In this document: positions 2 through 38,167 of the stretch, piece after piece
How the letters are laid out: the number at the start of each line of letters is the position of its first letter
Numbering within the stretch: the stretch's first letter is position 1
Source: Chitinophagales bacterium 65-1
GTDB taxonomy: Bacteria > Bacteroidota > Bacteroidia > Chitinophagales > Chitinophagaceae
DNA length: 38,167 nt
Assembly (NCBI GenBank): GCA_002050465.1
Contig: MWYX01000058.1
Coordinates: forward strand, 1 to 38,167
Reading direction: 5' to 3'
Made by a program: the position numbers and the translations under genes
Notes under the pieces: model-generated
What the model saw: the letters and a program-made list of their open reading frames with translations, nothing else
Database searches by the model: none
What the model was told of the DNA's origin: nothing

Positions 2-202
2 GGTAAAATAGATCTGCGTGAAATGAATGCCTGGGTAGAGATTGATAAAAGCGCTGCAGGTAAAATGATAAAATCGATTGATGGCAAAAAACACAATGGC
101 AGCCTGATACGTATGAATGAAGCTGATGGCGGGTTTAAGAGGCCAGCTGAAGAAGGCGGCAGCGGAAGAAAAAGAATTCCTTTGAGGGAGAAAAGGTATT
201 GA
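2..202 (+). CDS. C-terminal end of a DEAD-box RNA helicase (partial)
   Basis: The reading frame is open from base 2 to the TGA at 200-202 and enters from outside the window, so only the last 66 residues are visible. They read as the end of a DbpA-like RNA-binding domain (GKIDLREMNAWVEI near the start, then a short strand ending SLIRMNEA), followed by a low-complexity basic tail rich in Gly, Arg and Lys (EEGGSGRKR). That combination is typical of the C-terminus of Bacteroidota DEAD/DEAH-box RNA helicases, which remodel ribosomal or messenger RNA in the cytoplasm. The catalytic helicase domains lie outside the window, so the assignment rests on the tail alone. It could be another RNA-binding protein with a similar tail. 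Confidence 0.55.
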   Translation, partial: GKIDLREMNAWVEIDKSAAGKMIKSIDGKKHNGSLIRMNEADGGFKRPAEEGGSGRKRIPLREKRY

Positions 203-6641: not shown

Positions 6642-7136
6642 TTAAAATATATATGCCAGCCGTGCACCAACAGCACCTGAAGTAGCGCCTCCTTTTGATT
6701 GAGCAGTATACTTAAGTAAAGCTGAAATGTTATTACTTATTTTAAATCCTATACCTGGTGCATATGTAAAAGCACTACCCCCACCTTTGGTATAAAAAGT
6801 AAGACCTAATTGAGCGGAAGCATAAATTTGCGGTGAAAATCCAAATTCAACACCACCTAATACAGGCAAATATCCTGCACTACCTGAACCGTAAGTACTT
6901 TTTAAAGAATAGTTTATATACCCGGCATATAGAGTTATTGCTGCATCATCAGCAATTGCAAAATTTCCCTGGCCTGAAGCGCCAAATCCAAAAGAATATA
7001 TGTCTCCAAAAGTTCCCACCGGCAAAGATAATTCTGCCCCCAGGCTAAATGATGTGTTAGATGATGATACTTTGTCCTGCGCAGCGGTATGTAGTATAAA
7101 TATTATACCAACAATAGCTAAAAATAATTTTTTCAT
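6642..7136 (-). CDS. Small outer-membrane beta-barrel protein (paralogue A)
   Basis: A 164-residue secreted protein. A signal peptide covers about 1-19 (MKKLFLAIVGIIFILHTAAQ). The rest is a series of amphipathic strands rich in Gly, Ser and aromatic residues, ending RLAYIF with the terminal Phe expected for recognition by the BAM assembly machinery. With roughly 145 mature residues it would form an eight-stranded barrel. It is clearly related to the next gene upstream (7259-7750): both share a [SA]GY[IL]PxLxG stretch and a C-terminal APxIG...RLAY block. The role is unknown; small barrels of this kind are often structural or adhesive. It has its own promoter-like sequence and a terminator on each side. 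Confidence 0.75.
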   Translation of the reverse strand: MKKLFLAIVGIIFILHTAAQDKVSSSNTSFSLGAELSLPVGTFGDIYSFGFGASGQGNFAIADDAAITLYAGYINYSLKSTYGSGSAGYLPVLGGVEFGFSPQIYASAQLGLTFYTKGGGSAFTYAPGIGFKISNNISALLKYTAQSKGGATSGAVGARLAYIF

Positions 7137-7178
7137 GATTTTTTTGTTTAATGAATATTAGGCATTAATGAACAAATA

Positions 7179-7209
7179 CAAAATTAGTTCGTTAACCTTT
7201 ATCATGCAA
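7179..7209 (-). promoter_or_regulatory. Promoter for the beta-barrel gene at 6642-7136
   Basis: On the minus strand the -7 box TAATTTTG (7179-7186) matches TAnnTTTG exactly and is preceded by TTG (7207-7209) 20 bases upstream, the spacing of Bacteroidota primary-sigma promoters. It lies about 43 bases from the start codon and just after the terminator of the preceding gene. Confidence 0.55.
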
Positions 7210-7214
7210 CATAA

Positions 7215-7240
7215 AAGAGGCCTCATTACAGAGGCCTCTT
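7215..7240 (-). terminator. Intrinsic terminator of the 7259-7750 gene
   Basis: AAGAGGCCTC (7215-7224) and GAGGCCTCTT (7231-7240) form a perfect 10-base-pair stem with a 6-base loop (ATTACA). On the minus strand it is followed by a short T tract (TTTTAT). It lies 18 bases downstream of the stop codon. Confidence 0.85.
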
Positions 7241-7258
7241 AAATTTCTTAGAATACAG

Positions 7259-7750
7259 TTAGAAATTGTAAGCTAACCTTGCAACAATTGCAGTTGGCCC
7301 AAAAGAAATATATTTTGCAGAGATGTCAAAATTCTTTCCGAATCCGTAACCTATACTTGGAGCCCATGCAAAGTTACCGTCATCATCGCTTCCGGGATTA
7401 TTGGTGGTATTGAAAGCATAACCGATTTGGCCATGGCCATATAAACCTTTACCTAAACCTAATTTAAGTCCGGCTAATAAGGGAATGTAACCAGAATGTC
7501 CTTTAGATCCGTTGAAATCATACGCCATGTTTTCGTACCCTGCGCTTGCAGTAAATTTTAAAGTAGACCCCATTGGAATATCCAATTGAATATCTGCGCC
7601 TGCAGCCAGCTTATAATCTGTAGAAGTACCGCTACCAACATTACCTGCAATGCTAAAAGTAGTTCCTCTAGGTACAACATCTGTTTCCTGAGCGTTTACC
7701 GAGACTGCAGTTACTATAAATGCAGTTACAGCTAATAATAGTTTTTTCAT
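7259..7750 (-). CDS. Small outer-membrane beta-barrel protein (paralogue B)
   Basis: A 163-residue secreted protein with signal peptide MKKLLLAVTAFIVTAVSVNAQ and a mature part made of alternating strands (FSIAGNVGSGTSTDYKLAAG, LKFTASAGYENMAYDF and so on), ending RLAYNF. It is a paralogue of the gene at 6642-7136 and equally fits an eight-stranded outer-membrane barrel. A possible -7 box (TAACTTTG, 7800-7807) lies about 50 bases upstream and a strong terminator follows the gene, so it appears monocistronic. A hairpin with a 10-bp stem and its own leader suggest strong expression, but this is inference. Function unknown. Confidence 0.75.
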   Translation of the reverse strand: MKKLLLAVTAFIVTAVSVNAQETDVVPRGTTFSIAGNVGSGTSTDYKLAAGADIQLDIPMGSTLKFTASAGYENMAYDFNGSKGHSGYIPLLAGLKLGLGKGLYGHGQIGYAFNTTNNPGSDDDGNFAWAPSIGYGFGKNFDISAKYISFGPTAIVARLAYNF

Positions 7751-7799
7751 TTTTCTTGAATTTTTGGTTTAAAATAATTAATGGATTTAAGTATCAAGG

Positions 7800-7807
7800 C
7801 AAAGTTA
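7800..7807 (-). promoter_or_regulatory. Possible -7 box (TAACTTTG) for the 7259-7750 gene
   Basis: An exact TAnnTTTG match on the minus strand 50 bases ahead of the start codon. A clear TTG -33 box is not visible at the usual spacing, so confidence is moderate. Confidence 0.4.
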
Positions 7808-7909
7808 TACCTTTTTGTTAGTTTTATCCTCCTTTTAGAAAAAATCATGCCGATTTAAAAAAACTCTTTTATACATTGTTCTTTATAAATAATTTTTTTA
7901 CAGAAATAA

Positions 7910-8566
7910 TTATTCTGTTGTATTACCTCCCAATAAATAGCCAATTCTTATTCCAAAGTATCTGTTTTTAAAAGATACTTCATTATCATTGCTAAGATCA
8001 CTAAATCCTAAATTATAATTAACGGATAAAAAGATGCCATTAGACAATTGGTATCCGGCTAGCAAATTACCTGAAAACTCAAAACGTTTTAAATCATCAT
8101 TGTTTGCATCACTTCCAAAGTTAATTTTCTCTTCGCCTGATGTATTTTGGCCGGGAAGAACTCCCCCTGTAATAGAGTATTTGGTTTTACCACTTAATCC
8201 ATATGCTAAGGCAGGCCCTGCCCCAACAAAAAAGCCCCCTGCAGCTTTGTAAATAAAATCAAGAGGAAGCTCGATATAGTTTAAAGTTATCTTACTTTCA
8301 GACGTTAAAGTACCTTCAGTTTCATTAACCTTACCTCCTTTTTGAGTATAATTTAATCCTGGCCGGAAAATAAAATTAGTTGAAAGAGGAAAACTAGTGA
8401 ACACTCCTGCAGTGAAACCTAATTTAGAATCCGTAGATTTATTTAAGGAGGAAGTTTGATCTTCAATTTTTACTGAAGCTAATGTAGCGCCACCGGTAAT
8501 ACCAAATTGGGCAAAGGCAGTGGTTGAAATAAATACAATTGCTACAATAATAAATAATTTTTTCAT
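7910..8566 (-). CDS. Outer-membrane beta-barrel protein (PorT-like)
   Basis: A 218-residue secreted protein. Signal peptide at 1-19 (MKKLFIIVAIVFISTTAFAQ), then FGITGGATLASVKI, the usual opening of the Bacteroidota 'outer membrane beta-barrel/PorT' family. The remaining strands (LGFTAGVFTSFPLSTNFIFRPGLNYTQKGG, ITLNYIELPLDFIYK, FFVGAGPALAYGLSG, FGIRIGYLLGG) fit that domain. LNYIELPLDFIYK is a characteristic family block. It is larger than, and not obviously a close paralogue of, the two barrels downstream. Its leader contains a (TAAG)n stretch at 8593-8607. The function is unknown; the protein is predicted to sit in the outer membrane. Confidence 0.8.
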   Translation of the reverse strand: MKKLFIIVAIVFISTTAFAQFGITGGATLASVKIEDQTSSLNKSTDSKLGFTAGVFTSFPLSTNFIFRPGLNYTQKGGKVNETEGTLTSESKITLNYIELPLDFIYKAAGGFFVGAGPALAYGLSGKTKYSITGGVLPGQNTSGEEKINFGSDANNDDLKRFEFSGNLLAGYQLSNGIFLSVNYNLGFSDLSNDNEVSFKNRYFGIRIGYLLGGNTTE

Positions 8567-33342: not shown

Positions 33343-33834
33343 TTACGATGATTTGCTTAATAGCCTGACTTCAAGCATATCTTTTGATGTGGATAATAAG
33401 TTTCTCATGCTCTGATTAAATACAGGATGTATTAAGTCAGCAGCTATTTCATTTAAAGGTGTCAAAAGAAATTTTCTGTTTTGTAATTCAGGATGAGGAA
33501 TGGTAAGGTTTGGCAGATTAATAATTTCATCATTAAAAAATAAAATATCGATATCAATTATTCTGGAAGCATTCTTGTAAGTTCTTATCCTTCCCATTTT
33601 ATTTTCAATAGAAAGAATCAATTGCATAATCTTATGAGGAGATAATTTTGTTTTTACCAATAACACCTGGTTTAAGAAATCCGGTTGGGATTTAATACCC
33701 CATGATCCTGTTTCATAAACTGAGGAGGACATTACAATACTTCCAACTTCATCTTTTATAAATGATCTTGCAATAGCAAGATTTTCAATCCGGTTGCCTA
33801 AATTTCCGCCTATAGATAAGTATACTGAATTCAT
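33343..33834 (-). CDS. folK: 2-amino-4-hydroxy-6-hydroxymethyldihydropteridine diphosphokinase
   Basis: HPPK transfers pyrophosphate from ATP to 6-hydroxymethyl-dihydropterin in folate synthesis. The 163 residues match the usual size. SIGGNLGNRIENL (7-19) is the N-terminal signature, RIIDIDILFF (91-100) holds the two metal aspartates D94 and D96, and IPHPELQNRKFLLTPL (112-127) is the ATP-side signature. The start codon overlaps the stop of the RES toxin gene by four bases (ATGA), so it is translationally coupled to a toxin-antitoxin pair. This is an unusual place for a folate gene. Confidence 0.95.
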   Translation of the reverse strand: MNSVYLSIGGNLGNRIENLAIARSFIKDEVGSIVMSSSVYETGSWGIKSQPDFLNQVLLVKTKLSPHKIMQLILSIENKMGRIRTYKNASRIIDIDILFFNDEIINLPNLTIPHPELQNRKFLLTPLNEIAADLIHPVFNQSMRNLLSTSKDMLEVRLLSKSS

Positions 33835-34289
33835 TCCTGCGTTTTAAGTAATCTTTTATCAAGTTCCAACAATTCAGAGTTAACCATTTTTACTTTTTTG
33901 AAATCTTTATGTAGCGGATTGATTAAAAAGTTGTGTTCCTGAGGAACAATGGCAGACGGAACTTTTAAAATCAAAGATTTACCGGCAAAAATAAATTGTT
34001 CTCCTATCCATTGAGTATAATTTAAATGTTGCTGCCAGTCATCTTTTAATTTAGTAAGTAAAATGTCCTGAAATTCTATATCAGGAATTTGTATAGTTAA
34101 CAAATATTGCTTTTGTGGAATATCAATTTCTCTTAAATGAACAAGGCTTTCTAAAATAGAAAGAGAAATATATTCACCCGTATATAACATTTTTATACCT
34201 TTTGAATTCCAACGGGAGCCGTTTATAGCTGCACCATTCCCGGAGATATCATCTTTATATAGTTCGTTTGAAATTCTGTAAACTATCAT
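33831..34289 (-). CDS. RES-domain toxin
   Basis: A 152-residue RES-domain protein, the toxin class named for its conserved Arg, Glu and Ser. It opens MIVYRIS (R5) and continues SGNGAAINGSRWNSKGIKMLYTGE (16-39) and SLSILESLVHL (42-52, E47), which are the characteristic blocks, with a later serine-bearing stretch (PSAIVPQEHNFLINPLH). Known RES toxins break down NAD+ or ADP-ribosylate a nucleotide-synthesis enzyme. Which applies here cannot be decided by sequence. The start overlaps the Xre-type antitoxin stop by four bases (ATGA), and its own stop overlaps folK by four. Confidence 0.92.
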   Translation of the reverse strand: MIVYRISNELYKDDISGNGAAINGSRWNSKGIKMLYTGEYISLSILESLVHLREIDIPQKQYLLTIQIPDIEFQDILLTKLKDDWQQHLNYTQWIGEQFIFAGKSLILKVPSAIVPQEHNFLINPLHKDFKKVKMVNSELLELDKRLLKTQE

Positions 34290-34741
34290 GCAAAAAGCCC
34301 ATGTTCTATTCTGCCTAACTGAGTAAGTACGAGATTAATTCCGTCTATGCTTCTTAAGGATTGTAACGATAATCTCCCTTCAAGCATGTAAGGATTACTT
34401 CTTAACCAACTGATGAATTTATCAAGACTTCCAAAAACCTCTATACCCCTTTTTATTACCTTATCTATCTGTAAAATCCTGTCAACAATACTAAAAGGAA
34501 AGCTGCTATTAGCTTTTGCATAGCGTTGCAGTGTTCTTTCAGAGATATGAAGTATTTGCGACCACTCCTGCAACGTAAATGGGATTTTATCAGCAATTTT
34601 TTTAAATTCTTTATAATTAAAATCCTTTACCAATGGCATTTGCTTTACCGCTGAAAAGTTTATTAAGGGCTCCTGTATCTTTGACACCTTAGTATGAGGT
34701 TTATACTCAGCCTTATTTTTAATATTTTTATTCTTTTCCAT
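34286..34741 (-). CDS. Xre/MbcA/ParS toxin-binding-domain antitoxin
   Basis: A 151-residue antitoxin. A helix-turn-helix region lies at about 56-75 (TLQEWSQILHISERTLQRYA). The C-terminal half (about 84-151) is the DUF2384 toxin-binding domain (IDKVIKRGIEVFGSLDKFISWLRSNPYMLEGRLSLQSL, ending IEHGLFA), the usual partner of RES toxins. I start at the ATG at 34741; the longer TTG reading adds four residues and would run into the operator palindrome. The promoter has two matching palindromes (see 34748-34793), consistent with autorepression by the antitoxin-toxin complex. The N-terminal 40 residues are charged and probably flexible. Confidence 0.92.
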   Translation of the reverse strand: MEKNKNIKNKAEYKPHTKVSKIQEPLINFSAVKQMPLVKDFNYKEFKKIADKIPFTLQEWSQILHISERTLQRYAKANSSFPFSIVDRILQIDKVIKRGIEVFGSLDKFISWLRSNPYMLEGRLSLQSLRSIDGINLVLTQLGRIEHGLFA

Positions 34742-34747
34742 TATTAT

Positions 34748-34759
34748 TGACAATTGTCA
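34748..34759. promoter_or_regulatory. Operator palindrome TGACAATTGTCA
   Basis: A 12-base perfect palindrome seven bases from the antitoxin ATG, overlapping the expected transcription start. It shares GACAxxTGTC with the palindrome at 34771-34780, the two centres 22 bases (about two helical turns) apart. Confidence 0.6.
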
Positions 34760-36013: not shown

Positions 36014-36081
36014 TGATAAAATAATTTTTTATAATGCAACGAACTTCACTAAACCATTGTCAACCACTTTGAACGCAGTAC

Positions 36082-36642
36082 ATGGATTACTACAAACTGG
36101 TAAAAGATACGCTTAAATTAAGGCCGGAAGCACAACGCCAATTATATGAGCACTTTGCCCAACAAATGCTTGGTGTTTGCTTTCGCTATACAAAAAGTAT
36201 TGCCGATGCTGAAGATATTTTACAGGAAGGCTTTGTAAAAGTATTTAAGCATTTACATCAATACAATTTTGAAGGTGAGCTTGGCTCATGGATAAGAAAA
36301 GTAATGGTGAATACTGCACTTAATTATCTCAAAAAAAATAAAAGATATCAATATGATCTGTCATTTGAGGAACTTGTTTTGCACCCGGTTTCAGCAGATG
36401 ATCCAGTAGTGAAATTACAGGCCAAGGAACTGGCAGAACTGATAAGGCAGTTACCAACAGGCTTTCAAACTATTTTTAATCTTCATGCTGTTGAAGGGTA
36501 CTCTCACGTAGAAATTGCAGCGATGTTAGGTATTACTGATGGCACCTCCAGGTCGCAATATGCAAGGGCAAGAACATTGCTTATTGAATGGATACAAAAA
36601 TTCTCATTAGAAATAAAACCGGAGAACTATGCGAGAAAATGA
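36082..36642 (+). CDS. ECF-type RNA polymerase sigma factor
   Basis: A 186-residue sigma-70-family ECF factor. Region 2 spans about 15-90 with LGVCFRYTKSIADAEDILQEGFVKVFKHL (the -10 recognition and core-binding helices) and LGSWIRKVMVNTALNYLKK. Region 4 spans about 118-170 with LIRQLPTGFQTIFNLHAVEGYSHVEIAAMLGITDGTSRSQYARARTLL (the -35 HTH). No region 1 or 3 exists, as is normal for ECF sigma factors. It overlaps the following gene by 14 bases, so the two are co-expressed, and the partner is probably its regulator. Confidence 0.95.
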   Translation: MDYYKLVKDTLKLRPEAQRQLYEHFAQQMLGVCFRYTKSIADAEDILQEGFVKVFKHLHQYNFEGELGSWIRKVMVNTALNYLKKNKRYQYDLSFEELVLHPVSADDPVVKLQAKELAELIRQLPTGFQTIFNLHAVEGYSHVEIAAMLGITDGTSRSQYARARTLLIEWIQKFSLEIKPENYARK

Positions 36643-37969
36643 ATTTGAAAAACAGGTACAGCAAAAAATGGATGAGCTAAAATTACATCCGTCCGACGCT
36701 GTATGGCAAAAAATAGAACCTCAGATCAAAAAAGAAAAACGACGCAGATGGATACTATTTTTTTTGCCACCAATATTCTTTGCTTTTTTATATGGCGGGT
36801 TTGTGTTATTAAACAGAACTAATTTAAGCCATGAAAATCAGCCTCAGCTAACAAAAAATTTTATTAAAAAAAATACTACTAATGAAAAATCTAAATCCAG
36901 ATTTGATTCAATAAAAAATAATCAACCTCTTACAGAAAATAAAAAAGCATTTGTTGAAACATCCATTGCCAAAGGCAATAGTGATCAAAAAATAAAAAAA
37001 CGGGGTAAATTTAAAAGCCCCGGTGGTTATAAACTTATTGCAGGTTTTACAAATGACATGCCCTATAATAAAAAAGAATTTGACACAACACAAAGGATTG
37101 TGAAAAATGAAAAACTAAAAATCGCTATTAATACTCAGGAACAGAAGAAAATATTCTCTGATAAGGGAAACAAATCTGATAGTACGAATATTCCTGAAGA
37201 TAAGTTATCAAACCAGGCTAAGCTTGATTTAATTACTGATATTAAAGAGAAAAAAAATGAAAATGTAATAAGCAATGATACTAACAAGATAAGAACAGCA
37301 AAAAATAAACATTCGTGGAATTGGGGTTTTTCTTTTTCAGGAGGCGTATCAGTTGTCGGCAATAGTATTTTTGGGTCTCAGGATAAGATCGCTGCCAATC
37401 CTAATTTTAATTCACCCGGTCAAATTAACCCCATTACACCTTCGGAAATAAAGACTGGCCTGGCTTTAATAACAGGCTTTACCTTTGAAAAATATATATT
37501 ACCAAAAATATTATTTGCAACAGGCTTCAATTATAAATTATTCAGCACAACCAATACAGTGGGGGTAGACAGCGCTAATTATTTCAGAGCAAACAGAGAT
37601 GTTAGCACCTATCATAACTATTTCCATTATATCGGATTACCCATTGAGTTTAAATTTCAAATAGCTAATTCTAAAAAAACTCAATTGTATTTAAATACAG
37701 GATTTTCTATATCGCAACTCATCAGCAGCAATGCTTTACAATTTAATAATGCTACAGGCCTGTATTATTATGATAATTCACAATTTAATAAAACACAAAT
37801 CGGTTTTAATACAGGATTTGATATTGCATTCAATACAAATCAGAGAAAGTCTTTTCTCCTTGGGCCTTATTTTAATTATAGCATTTCTAAAATTGCTGAT
37901 CAGGGATATAACAAACATCATTTTACTTTTATAGGGTTACGGACACAATTTATTTTTAGAAAAAAATAG
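36629..37969 (+). CDS. Membrane-anchored beta-barrel protein, probable sigma-factor partner
   Basis: A 446-residue protein of three parts. The first 40 residues are charged and lack a signal peptide (ENEFEKQVQQKMDELKLHPSDAVWQKIEPQIKKEKRRR), resembling the cytoplasmic anti-sigma segment found in Bacteroidota sigma partners. A single membrane segment follows at about 41-62. A charged, Lys/Asn-rich, probably disordered linker runs from about 65 to 225. The last ~220 residues (from WNWGFSFSGGVSVVG) form a beta-barrel-like domain of the outer-membrane beta-barrel family, ending TQFIFRKK. It overlaps the ECF sigma gene by 14 bases. I infer an anti-sigma-type regulator reaching from the cytoplasm to the outer membrane. 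Confidence 0.75.
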   Translation: MRENEFEKQVQQKMDELKLHPSDAVWQKIEPQIKKEKRRRWILFFLPPIFFAFLYGGFVLLNRTNLSHENQPQLTKNFIKKNTTNEKSKSRFDSIKNNQPLTENKKAFVETSIAKGNSDQKIKKRGKFKSPGGYKLIAGFTNDMPYNKKEFDTTQRIVKNEKLKIAINTQEQKKIFSDKGNKSDSTNIPEDKLSNQAKLDLITDIKEKKNENVISNDTNKIRTAKNKHSWNWGFSFSGGVSVVGNSIFGSQDKIAANPNFNSPGQINPITPSEIKTGLALITGFTFEKYILPKILFATGFNYKLFSTTNTVGVDSANYFRANRDVSTYHNYFHYIGLPIEFKFQIANSKKTQLYLNTGFSISQLISSNALQFNNATGLYYYDNSQFNKTQIGFNTGFDIAFNTNQRKSFLLGPYFNYSISKIADQGYNKHHFTFIGLRTQFIFRKK

Positions 37970-38056
37970 CTGTCGTGCCACGTTTTTACTACAAGGGTTG
38001 TCAATCTCCAAACAATCTATAAATAAAATAATAATTCAAGCCTAAAAGTGAGTTTC

Positions 38057-38167
38057 ATGAAAAAGATAATTTCAATTTTACCCGTCTGTGTTATTTCAAT
38101 TTTAATTTTCAGCTTTGATAAAGCAGTTAACAACAATCAAACAATAAATCCCCTTCTTGGAGACATT
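38057..38167 (+). CDS. Start of a secreted protein (partial)
   Basis: The frame from the ATG at 38057 is open to the window end (37 codons). It encodes a signal peptide: a short basic start (MKKI), a hydrophobic core (ISILPVCVISILIFSF) and a polar region (DKAVNNNQTINPLL). The mature protein is outside the window and cannot be identified. It follows the beta-barrel gene by 87 bases on the same strand, so it may be part of the same regulon, which is a guess from position. Confidence 0.6.
   Translation, partial: MKKIISILPVCVISILIFSFDKAVNNNQTINPLLGDI

What the first reader, a model, noticed from the sequence alone, without database searches (positions are those of the whole stretch)
36082..37969. 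ECF sigma factor overlapped by a gene for a possible cytoplasm-to-outer-membrane signalling protein
The 446-residue partner has a charged cytoplasmic start without signal peptide, one membrane segment at about 41-62 preceded by KKEKRRR (positive-inside), a long charged linker of about 160 residues, and a C-terminal beta-barrel-like domain. Its gene overlaps the sigma gene by 14 bases. Most known sigma regulation in this phylum uses a separate anti-sigma factor and a separate outer-membrane receptor. Here one chain could do both: hold the sigma factor in the cytoplasm and sense state at the outer membrane. The linker is long enough in principle to cross the periplasm. This layout is seen in the sequence; the mechanism is inference, and similar fused genes may exist in other Bacteroidota without having been described functionally.
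Basis: partly seen in the sequence, partly recalled or inferred. Interest (0 to 1): 0.6.

Follow-up and report, generated by a model that had tools for sequence, protein, structure and literature searches.

The report
Two-membrane anti-sigma switch controlling lipoprotein genes
A bacterial gene pair appears to encode a switch in which one protein reaches from inside the cell to its outer membrane and holds back a gene activator; this kind of switch was recently described in gut Bacteroides, and here it looks wired to genes for surface-anchored lipoproteins.

Summary
The sigma gene (36082-36642) and the partner gene (36629-37969) overlap by 14 bases. The partner has a 40-residue cytoplasmic start, one membrane helix, a disordered ~166-residue linker and a C-terminal 8-strand OmpA-like barrel. 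The surmise that such genes are functionally undescribed does not hold: this is the layout of the Dma/Reo anti-sigma factors studied in Bacteroides/Phocaeicola (PMC9308784, PMC13088901, PMC13114119).

Found here: (1) all 77 readable of 80 best relatives overlap, 67 by exactly 14 bases. (2) All 78 sigma upstream regions checked carry TGCAACG-N15-TTGTCA, an ECF-type promoter. (3) A second copy follows the partner gene in 48 of 76 loci, the window included; in 45 of the 47 others an LVIVD-type lipoprotein gene is next. (4) Of 57 non-sigma ORFs behind fetched exact sites, 41 encode predicted lipoproteins; behind control sites 0 of 23. (5) The genome has a sister pair whose partner lacks the barrel.

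In the window's own incomplete genome only the two local promoters convince. Sigma binding, location and signal are inferred. Verdict: new member of a known kind, with a testable predicted regulon.

The parts
36035..36062 (+). promoter P1, TGCAACG-N15-TTGTCA, 19 nt before the sigma start codon
   Evidence: only exact match in the own genome; in 78 loci (window and 77 orthologs) 62 exact, 14 with one and 1 with two mismatches within 160 nt, and the last, L206, exact 195 nt upstream
36082..36642 (+). ECF sigma factor gene (Das/EcfO-like)
   Evidence: Sigma70_r2 8.5e-16 and Sigma70_r4_2 1.9e-13
36629..36642 (+). 14-base overlap of the two genes
   Evidence: same overlap in 67 of 77 readable orthologs, 11, 17 or 20 bases in the other 10
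36629..37969 (+). Dma/Reo-like anti-sigma factor gene, 446 aa
   Evidence: architecture
36629..36748 (+). residues 1-40: cytoplasmic putative sigma-binding part with a P....W motif
   Evidence: F6, P21 and W26 invariant in 74 sequences; W26 at 90% or more in 73 wider sequences; P..W in 104 of 108 partners of related sigma factors
36749..36817 (+). residues 41-63: single inner-membrane helix after KKEKRRR
   Evidence: hydrophobicity and helix 23-63
36818..37312 (+). residues 64-228: disordered periplasmic linker
   Evidence: pLDDT 43-59 from 61 to 220; least conserved part
37313..37966 (+). residues 229-446: 8-strand outer-membrane beta-barrel
   Evidence: PF13568; AlphaFold2; OmpA/NspA/OmpW matches
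37976..38003 (+). promoter P2, one mismatch (TGCCACG-N15-TTGTCA)
   Evidence: same place in 48 of 76 testable loci including this one
38057..38167 (+). start of the next ORF with a signal-peptide-like start, cut by the contig end; not the LVIVD lipoprotein that follows P2 in most relatives
   Evidence: sequence, translated by eye; contig C8 is 38167 bases

Best explanation
The pair is a Das-Dma (EcfO-Reo) type envelope switch. The 446-residue protein is inserted in the inner membrane by its single helix with residues 1-40 in the cytoplasm, its linker crosses the periplasm, and its 8-strand barrel is placed in the outer membrane. At rest residues 1-40 hold the ECF sigma factor. A disturbance at the outer membrane, or failure to fold or keep the barrel there, releases or destroys the anti-sigma part. 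The freed sigma factor then transcribes from TGCAACG-N15-TTGTCA: its own operon (P1, positive feedback), the gene behind P2, and, in family members that have them, scattered lipoprotein genes. Shown here: layout, predicted barrel, conserved overlap, conserved promoter pair, and lipoprotein enrichment at the motif in relatives. Inferred: sigma binding, two-membrane location, signal, release step, and that this sigma factor reads this promoter.
For: Sigma and barrel domains; barrel model and OmpA-type matches; invariant P21/W26 start and variable linker; overlap in 77 of 77 readable orthologs; P1 motif in all 78 upstreams checked; P2 in 48 of 76 loci, 45 of the 47 non-window ones with an LVIVD lipoprotein homologue next, against 1 of 28 loci without P2; 215 exact sites against 23 reversed-control sites in 195 genomes; 41 of 57 non-sigma ORFs behind fetched exact sites are predicted lipoproteins, control 0 of 23, mechanical background ORFs 6-10%; distal sites are denser in genomes that have this sigma clade (20 in 80.7 Mb against 11 in 144.3 Mb, p 0.0013). 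Published relatives show anti-sigma loss inducing the regulon, strong induction of the sigma gene, and NigD surface lipoproteins as targets (PMC9308784 section 13; PMC13114119 passages; PMC13088901).
Against: In the window's own genome (79.5% complete) no distal lipoprotein target was seen: of 44 further sites with up to 2 mismatches 28 were opened and none precedes a clear lipoprotein gene, and at that laxity real and reversed pattern are not far apart, 46 against 31. The gene behind P2 in the window is not the LVIVD lipoprotein, and no homologue of it was found in the genome (an empty answer there proves little). 24 of 116 fetched exact sites have no ORF within 5-70 nt and 16 precede other ORFs. 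Eleven exact sites occur in genomes without this sigma clade; one of them, L259, precedes a predicted lipoprotein, and L260 looks like one by eye. No direct sequence comparison with Bacteroides Dma1 or Reo was possible.
Confidence: 0.85

Rival explanations
1. The partner is an outer-membrane protein co-transcribed with an unrelated sigma factor; its start is only an uncleaved signal anchor and it does not inhibit the sigma factor.
For: No anti-sigma Pfam or NCBIfam domain is recognised in residues 1-40; no binding test was possible.
Against: Residues 1-40 are the most conserved part of the protein. A P..W motif near the start recurs in 104 of 108 partner proteins read behind related sigma genes, 52 of them overlapping and 56 within 100 nt, including partners with no barrel. 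Published relatives with this layout act as anti-sigma factors (PMC9308784, PMC13088901).
Confidence: 0.07
2. The C-terminal domain is a soluble periplasmic barrel and the protein is only an inner-membrane anti-sigma factor sensing the periplasm.
For: Barrel-less paralogs show that an outer-membrane part is not needed for the scheme; soluble barrels such as PsbO also score Z about 9-10.
Against: Pfam OMP_b-brl_2 above cut-off and the best matches are integral outer-membrane 8-strand barrels, NspA Z 15.9 and OmpA Z 15.8, well above PsbO.
Confidence: 0.06
3. The TGCAACG-N15-TTGTCA promoter is read by several paralogous sigma factors, so the lipoprotein regulon is shared and not specific to this pair.
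For: A paralog clade (group B) has a closely similar upstream motif, TGCAGC-N15-TTGTC, one base shorter in spacing (its dyads in 13-16 of 25), and some exact sites lie in genomes that lack the window's clade.
Against: The clade's dyad CAAC-N18-GTCA is upstream of sigma in 0 of 25, 2 of 22, 0 of 10 and 0 of 7 members of four other groups, and distal sites are about three times denser where the clade is present.
Confidence: 0.25

Closest known systems
EcfO-Reo of Phocaeicola vulgatus / Bacteroides fragilis (PMC9308784, section 13 and passages read; PMC13114119, passages; Ndamukong 2013 not held, only cited)
   Same: ECF sigma gene followed by an anti-sigma gene with inner-membrane segment, periplasmic span and outer-membrane C-terminal barrel; sigma gene strongly induced when the system is on; regulon includes surface lipoproteins (NigD).
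   Different: Here the predicted targets are an LVIVD-repeat lipoprotein and many small, mostly unrelated lipoproteins; host is a Chitinophagaceae; signal untested. An EcfO motif is in print according to PMC7366714 (passage) but I did not see it, so motifs were not compared.
Das1-Dma1 and Das2-Dma2 of Bacteroides thetaiotaomicron (Pardue 2024, not held; PMC13088901: introduction, one results section, discussion, part of the references and passages read)
   Same: [quoted passage not shown] das2 and neighbouring genes are among the most induced in the dma2 mutant.
   Different: Role in vesiculation not tested here; a second promoter behind the anti-sigma gene and an LVIVD neighbour were not mentioned in what I read.
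Dma3 of B. thetaiotaomicron (PMC13088901, discussion)
   Same: Named there as a member of the Dma family.
   Different: Dma3 carries its sigma domain at its own N-terminus; here the genes are separate and overlap.
TonB-dependent transducer cell-surface signalling (recalled; one search listing, PMC11637429)
   Same: Outer-membrane state is passed to an ECF sigma factor.
   Different: There receptor and anti-sigma factor are separate proteins; here one chain holds both parts.

Membership tests
ECF sigma factors | sigma-70 regions 2 and 4 only | tested here: met
   PF04542 and PF08281 above cut-off, 186 aa
[quoted passage not shown]
   14-base overlap
[quoted passage not shown]
   hydrophobic window 45-61 behind KKEKRRR; helix 23-63; prediction only
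[quoted passage not shown]
   prediction only
[quoted passage not shown]
   no Bacteroides Dma/Reo sequence was at hand; a guessed accession was not held
[quoted passage not shown]
   needs two-hybrid, pull-down or deletion
[quoted passage not shown]
   needs fractionation
Autoregulated ECF system | own ECF-type promoter upstream of the sigma gene | tested here: met
   TGCAACG-N15-TTGTCA in all 78 loci checked; that this sigma factor reads it is inferred
Class I anti-sigma domain (zinc-finger/RskA type) | recognisable Pfam anti-sigma domain | tested here: inconclusive
   no such Pfam match at E up to 1; the 40-residue part may be a short unmodelled form

The most novel reading that the evidence does not exclude
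The barrel is a tethered client of the outer-membrane assembly machinery: the cell measures whether it can still fold barrels and export surface lipoproteins by whether this one chain stays pinned in the outer membrane, and it answers by making surface lipoproteins from one promoter type used across a bacterial family. The same cytoplasmic anti-sigma start has been re-used with another sensor, a conserved short periplasmic domain in place of the barrel, and in some relatives it is repeated two or three times, so one chain could hold several sigma molecules.
Probability: 0.3. Interest if true: 0.75.

Novelty: new member of a known kind. Interest (0 to 1): 0.5.

Why it matters
The experimental work on two-membrane anti-sigma factors that I saw is from gut Bacteroidales, where the signal is not settled. 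Here the class extends to a family of largely environmental bacteria with a highly conserved promoter. A regulon can therefore be read from sequence, and it points to lipoproteins, as NigD does in the gut species. That makes the question of what the barrel senses testable with a simple promoter reporter, and barrel-less sister pairs in the same genome give a natural control.

Tried and rejected
Rejected: that the layout is functionally undescribed (published class). Rejected: that the overlap is a chance or annotation effect (77 of 77 readable orthologs). Rejected: that the barrel call rests on Pfam alone. The upstream conservation in the barrel-less group (GCAACC ... GACTTAAT) was not taken as a promoter because it appears to lie within sigma coding sequence (my reading).

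I found no paper on the LVIVD link or a Chitinophagaceae lipoprotein regulon, which search only an open-access library.

The lipoprotein rule was loosened after a first, stricter rule visibly missed cases. Strict: 31 of 57 true and 1 of 23 control ORFs. Loose, applied to both: 41 of 57 and 0 of 23. Some single calls are doubtful: L271 (64 nt away) looks like an ordinary signal peptide, L260 and L377 look like lipoproteins but fail the loose rule. Of the ORFs behind exact sites 11 are LVIVD homologues and thus related; of the rest, apart from the sigma genes, the largest related groups printed have two members. The 116 sites are 56 loci given by two searches (four of them, L268-L271, from other families of the order) plus 60 fetched from listed rows, roughly in list order; rows already held and several near contig starts or next to a known sigma gene were skipped, and the list itself was cut. 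Control: 23 sites read in both directions, 46 tests. The background ORFs are mechanical ORFs, many not genes. Orthologs dropped: 3 of 80 without room for the partner; for P2 also L162 (partner runs off) and L198 (less than 300 nt). Alignment A5 left out L144, L145, L147 (my choice) and L162 (incomplete). In the tree three loci with a misread partner (L107, L112, L118) and three without a readable partner (L032, L042, L108) were left out, and 'barrel' there means any partner not in the barrel-less list: of 73 such partners scanned, 50 match PF13568 and 16 PF13505. Not all sigma hits were fetched. Site totals were typed by hand.

Full report
What is there. The first is an ECF sigma factor (Sigma70_r2 8.5e-16, Sigma70_r4_2 1.9e-13). 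The second carries OMP_b-brl_2 (6.6e-9, residues 231-422, above cut-off) and no other confident domain. The window is the whole of contig C8 (38167 bases) of a 1.96 Mb, 68-contig genome estimated 79.5% complete. Its nearest named relatives by the sigma factor are a Chitinophagaceae MAG (95%) and Ginsengibacter hankyongi (78%). G016, listed as the same genus as the window, has a contig of the same length (655202) and the same 78% match as the G. hankyongi record, so the genus is probably that one (inference).

Structure. AlphaFold2 on a 74-sequence alignment gave mean pLDDT 73 and pTM 0.57: helix 5-16, helix 23-63, a disordered stretch to about 225, and eight long strands at 231-443. Foldseek and VIA-align match the barrel to integral 8-strand outer-membrane proteins: OmpA E 6.3e-7, NspA Z 15.9 with 153 residues at 3.4 A, OmpA Z 15.8 with 161 residues at 2.8 A, OmpW Z 14.0. 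Conservation falls in the order start (0.60), barrel (0.42), membrane segment (0.40), linker (0.19), and linker length varies from 146 to 251 residues with 166 here. Apart from the start codon, F6, P21 and W26 are invariant.

A known class. Evans and others (PMC9308784, section 13 read) describe an unusual anti-sigma factor in Phocaeicola vulgatus predicted to span the periplasm and end in an outer-membrane barrel; in a mutant interrupted in it 15 genes change, 14 of them upward, and the toxin BcpT raises its sigma gene 33-fold. Pardue and others name the class Dma with Das sigma factors; I read parts of the 2026 paper (PMC13088901), not the 2024 one, which is not held. PMC13114119 (passages) states that Reo spans all five compartments and that the EcfO regulon includes NigD surface lipoproteins. 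The window pair is a member of this kind by architecture. I could not compare it directly with a Bacteroides sequence.

Conservation of the pair. A scan of named genomes returned the 80 best of at least 554 relatives of the sigma factor; their titles name mostly Chitinophagaceae, Chitinophagales or unspecified Bacteroidetes/Sphingobacteriales. In 77 the partner could be read, and in all 77 the genes overlap: 67 by exactly 14 bases, 10 by 11, 17 or 20, always in the same relative frame. This suggests translational coupling (inference).

The promoter. Comparing 160 nt upstream of the sigma gene in 79 loci showed CAAC-N18-GTCA in 78 of 79. With the full motif TGCAACG-N15-TTGTCA, 62 of 78 loci match exactly, 14 with one and 1 with two mismatches; the last, L206, has an exact copy 195 bases upstream of the sigma start. 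AAC and GTC elements at such spacing are the usual look of ECF promoters (recalled). In the window it lies at 36035-36062, 19 nt before the start codon, and is the only exact match in the genome. The second good site, 37976-38003, lies just behind the partner gene; a third one-mismatch site on C14 lacks the GTC element. At two mismatches the reversed control is not far behind (46 against 31 sites), so weaker sites mean little.

The second promoter and its gene. In 76 loci with enough sequence behind the partner gene, the window included, 48 have the motif there within two mismatches (15 exact, 23 one, 10 two). In 45 of the other 47 the next ORF is homologous to one family, mostly a lipoprotein of about 410-430 residues with LVIVD repeats (PF08309, 1.6e-13 in the one member scanned), in most cases starting 16-22 nt away. 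Of the 28 loci without the motif only one has that gene next. Promoter and gene thus come and go together. The window is an exception in detail: its next ORF (38057, cut by the contig end) is a different one with a signal-peptide-like start, and no LVIVD homologue was found in the incomplete genome.

A lipoprotein regulon. In 195 genomes of the family the exact motif occurs 215 times against 23 for the same pattern read backwards. Of 116 distinct fetched sites, 35 precede the sigma gene, 41 a predicted lipoprotein, 16 another ORF and 24 no ORF within 5-70 nt. Behind the control sites 0 of 23 ORFs (46 tests) were lipoproteins, and among mechanical background ORFs 6-10%. A stricter rule used first gave 31 of 57 and 1 of 23. 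Eleven of the ORFs are LVIVD homologues; among the other non-sigma ones the all-against-all search printed no group larger than two, so the enrichment is not one gene family counted many times. Among 59 relatives, distal sites are denser in the 18 genomes with this sigma clade (20 in 80.7 Mb) than in the 41 without (11 in 144.3 Mb), p 0.0013. In the own genome no distal lipoprotein target was seen among the 28 of 44 further sites that were opened.

Paralogs and modularity. The same genome has two more close pairs: C24, sigma plus a 432-residue partner with membrane segment and barrel, and C22, sigma plus a 220-residue partner with the same P..W start and membrane helix but no barrel. Of 108 partner proteins read behind related sigma genes, 104 have a P..W motif near the start. 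In a tree of 106 sigma factors the 22 with the barrel-less partner and its conserved periplasmic domain (YITI.GPEGQPVKISPK...) form one supported group (100/99) nested among the others on a tree rooted only for drawing; one further short partner, L098, lies elsewhere. The domain has no confident Pfam match. By eye, four of these partners carry two tandem copies of the P..W unit and one, L076, three. The window's promoter dyad is upstream of sigma in 0 of 25, 2 of 22, 0 of 10 and 0 of 7 members of four other groups; group B, to which the C24 pair belongs, has its own related motif TGCAGC-N15-TTGTC.

How it most likely works. The barrel pins the chain in the outer membrane, the helix pins it in the inner membrane, and residues 1-40 hold the sigma factor. 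Envelope damage or failed barrel assembly frees the sigma factor, which switches on its own operon and lipoprotein genes. In P. vulgatus ecfO-reo are reported as the most upregulated genes under either BcpT or Bd-A (PMC13114119, passage); PMC9308784 says that bacteroidetocin A, which I take to be Bd-A, binds and inhibits BamA. Failed barrel assembly is therefore a reasonable candidate signal, but that it acts through the barrel of the anti-sigma factor is inference.

Verdict. The main gain is a predicted promoter and lipoprotein regulon, shared across the family, for a two-membrane anti-sigma system.

Noticed in passing
L137:2707-3366 (own genome, contig C22) and alignment A3: Barrel-less sister partner: same anti-sigma-like start and membrane helix, then a short conserved periplasmic domain without confident Pfam match; 22 such partners go with one sigma group.
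   Followed up: partly
L071, L093, L095, L101 (two copies), L076 (three copies): By eye the P..W anti-sigma-like unit is repeated in tandem before the membrane helix, as if one chain could hold two or three sigma molecules. L085, taken as a barrel type, may also have two.
   Followed up: partly
L136:3902-5859 (own genome, contig C24): Second barrel-type pair, separated by 59 nt instead of overlapping; near a gpmI-like gene (recognised by eye); its group has its own upstream motif TGCAGC-N15-TTGTC.
   Followed up: partly
L140, behind P2 (about 6960-8300): In the Ginsengibacter hankyongi record the LVIVD lipoprotein gene is split over two reading frames; sequencing slip or decay, not told apart.
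   Followed up: no
L139 (about 1.3 kb behind the partner gene); L189, L196, L160: ORFs of about 185-200 aa with signal-peptide-like starts near the LVIVD gene or behind the partner gene; no Pfam match for the one scanned.
   Followed up: no
window 33831-34753: RES-domain toxin (PF08808, 1.5e-23) and Xre/MbcA-type antitoxin (PF09722, 5.6e-8), overlapping genes on the - strand.
   Followed up: partly
G003, G005 (loci L259, L260): Exact promoter motif before a predicted lipoprotein (L259) and one that looks like it by eye (L260) in genomes where no sigma factor of the window's clade was found; relic, missing contig or cross-reading by a paralog.
   Followed up: no
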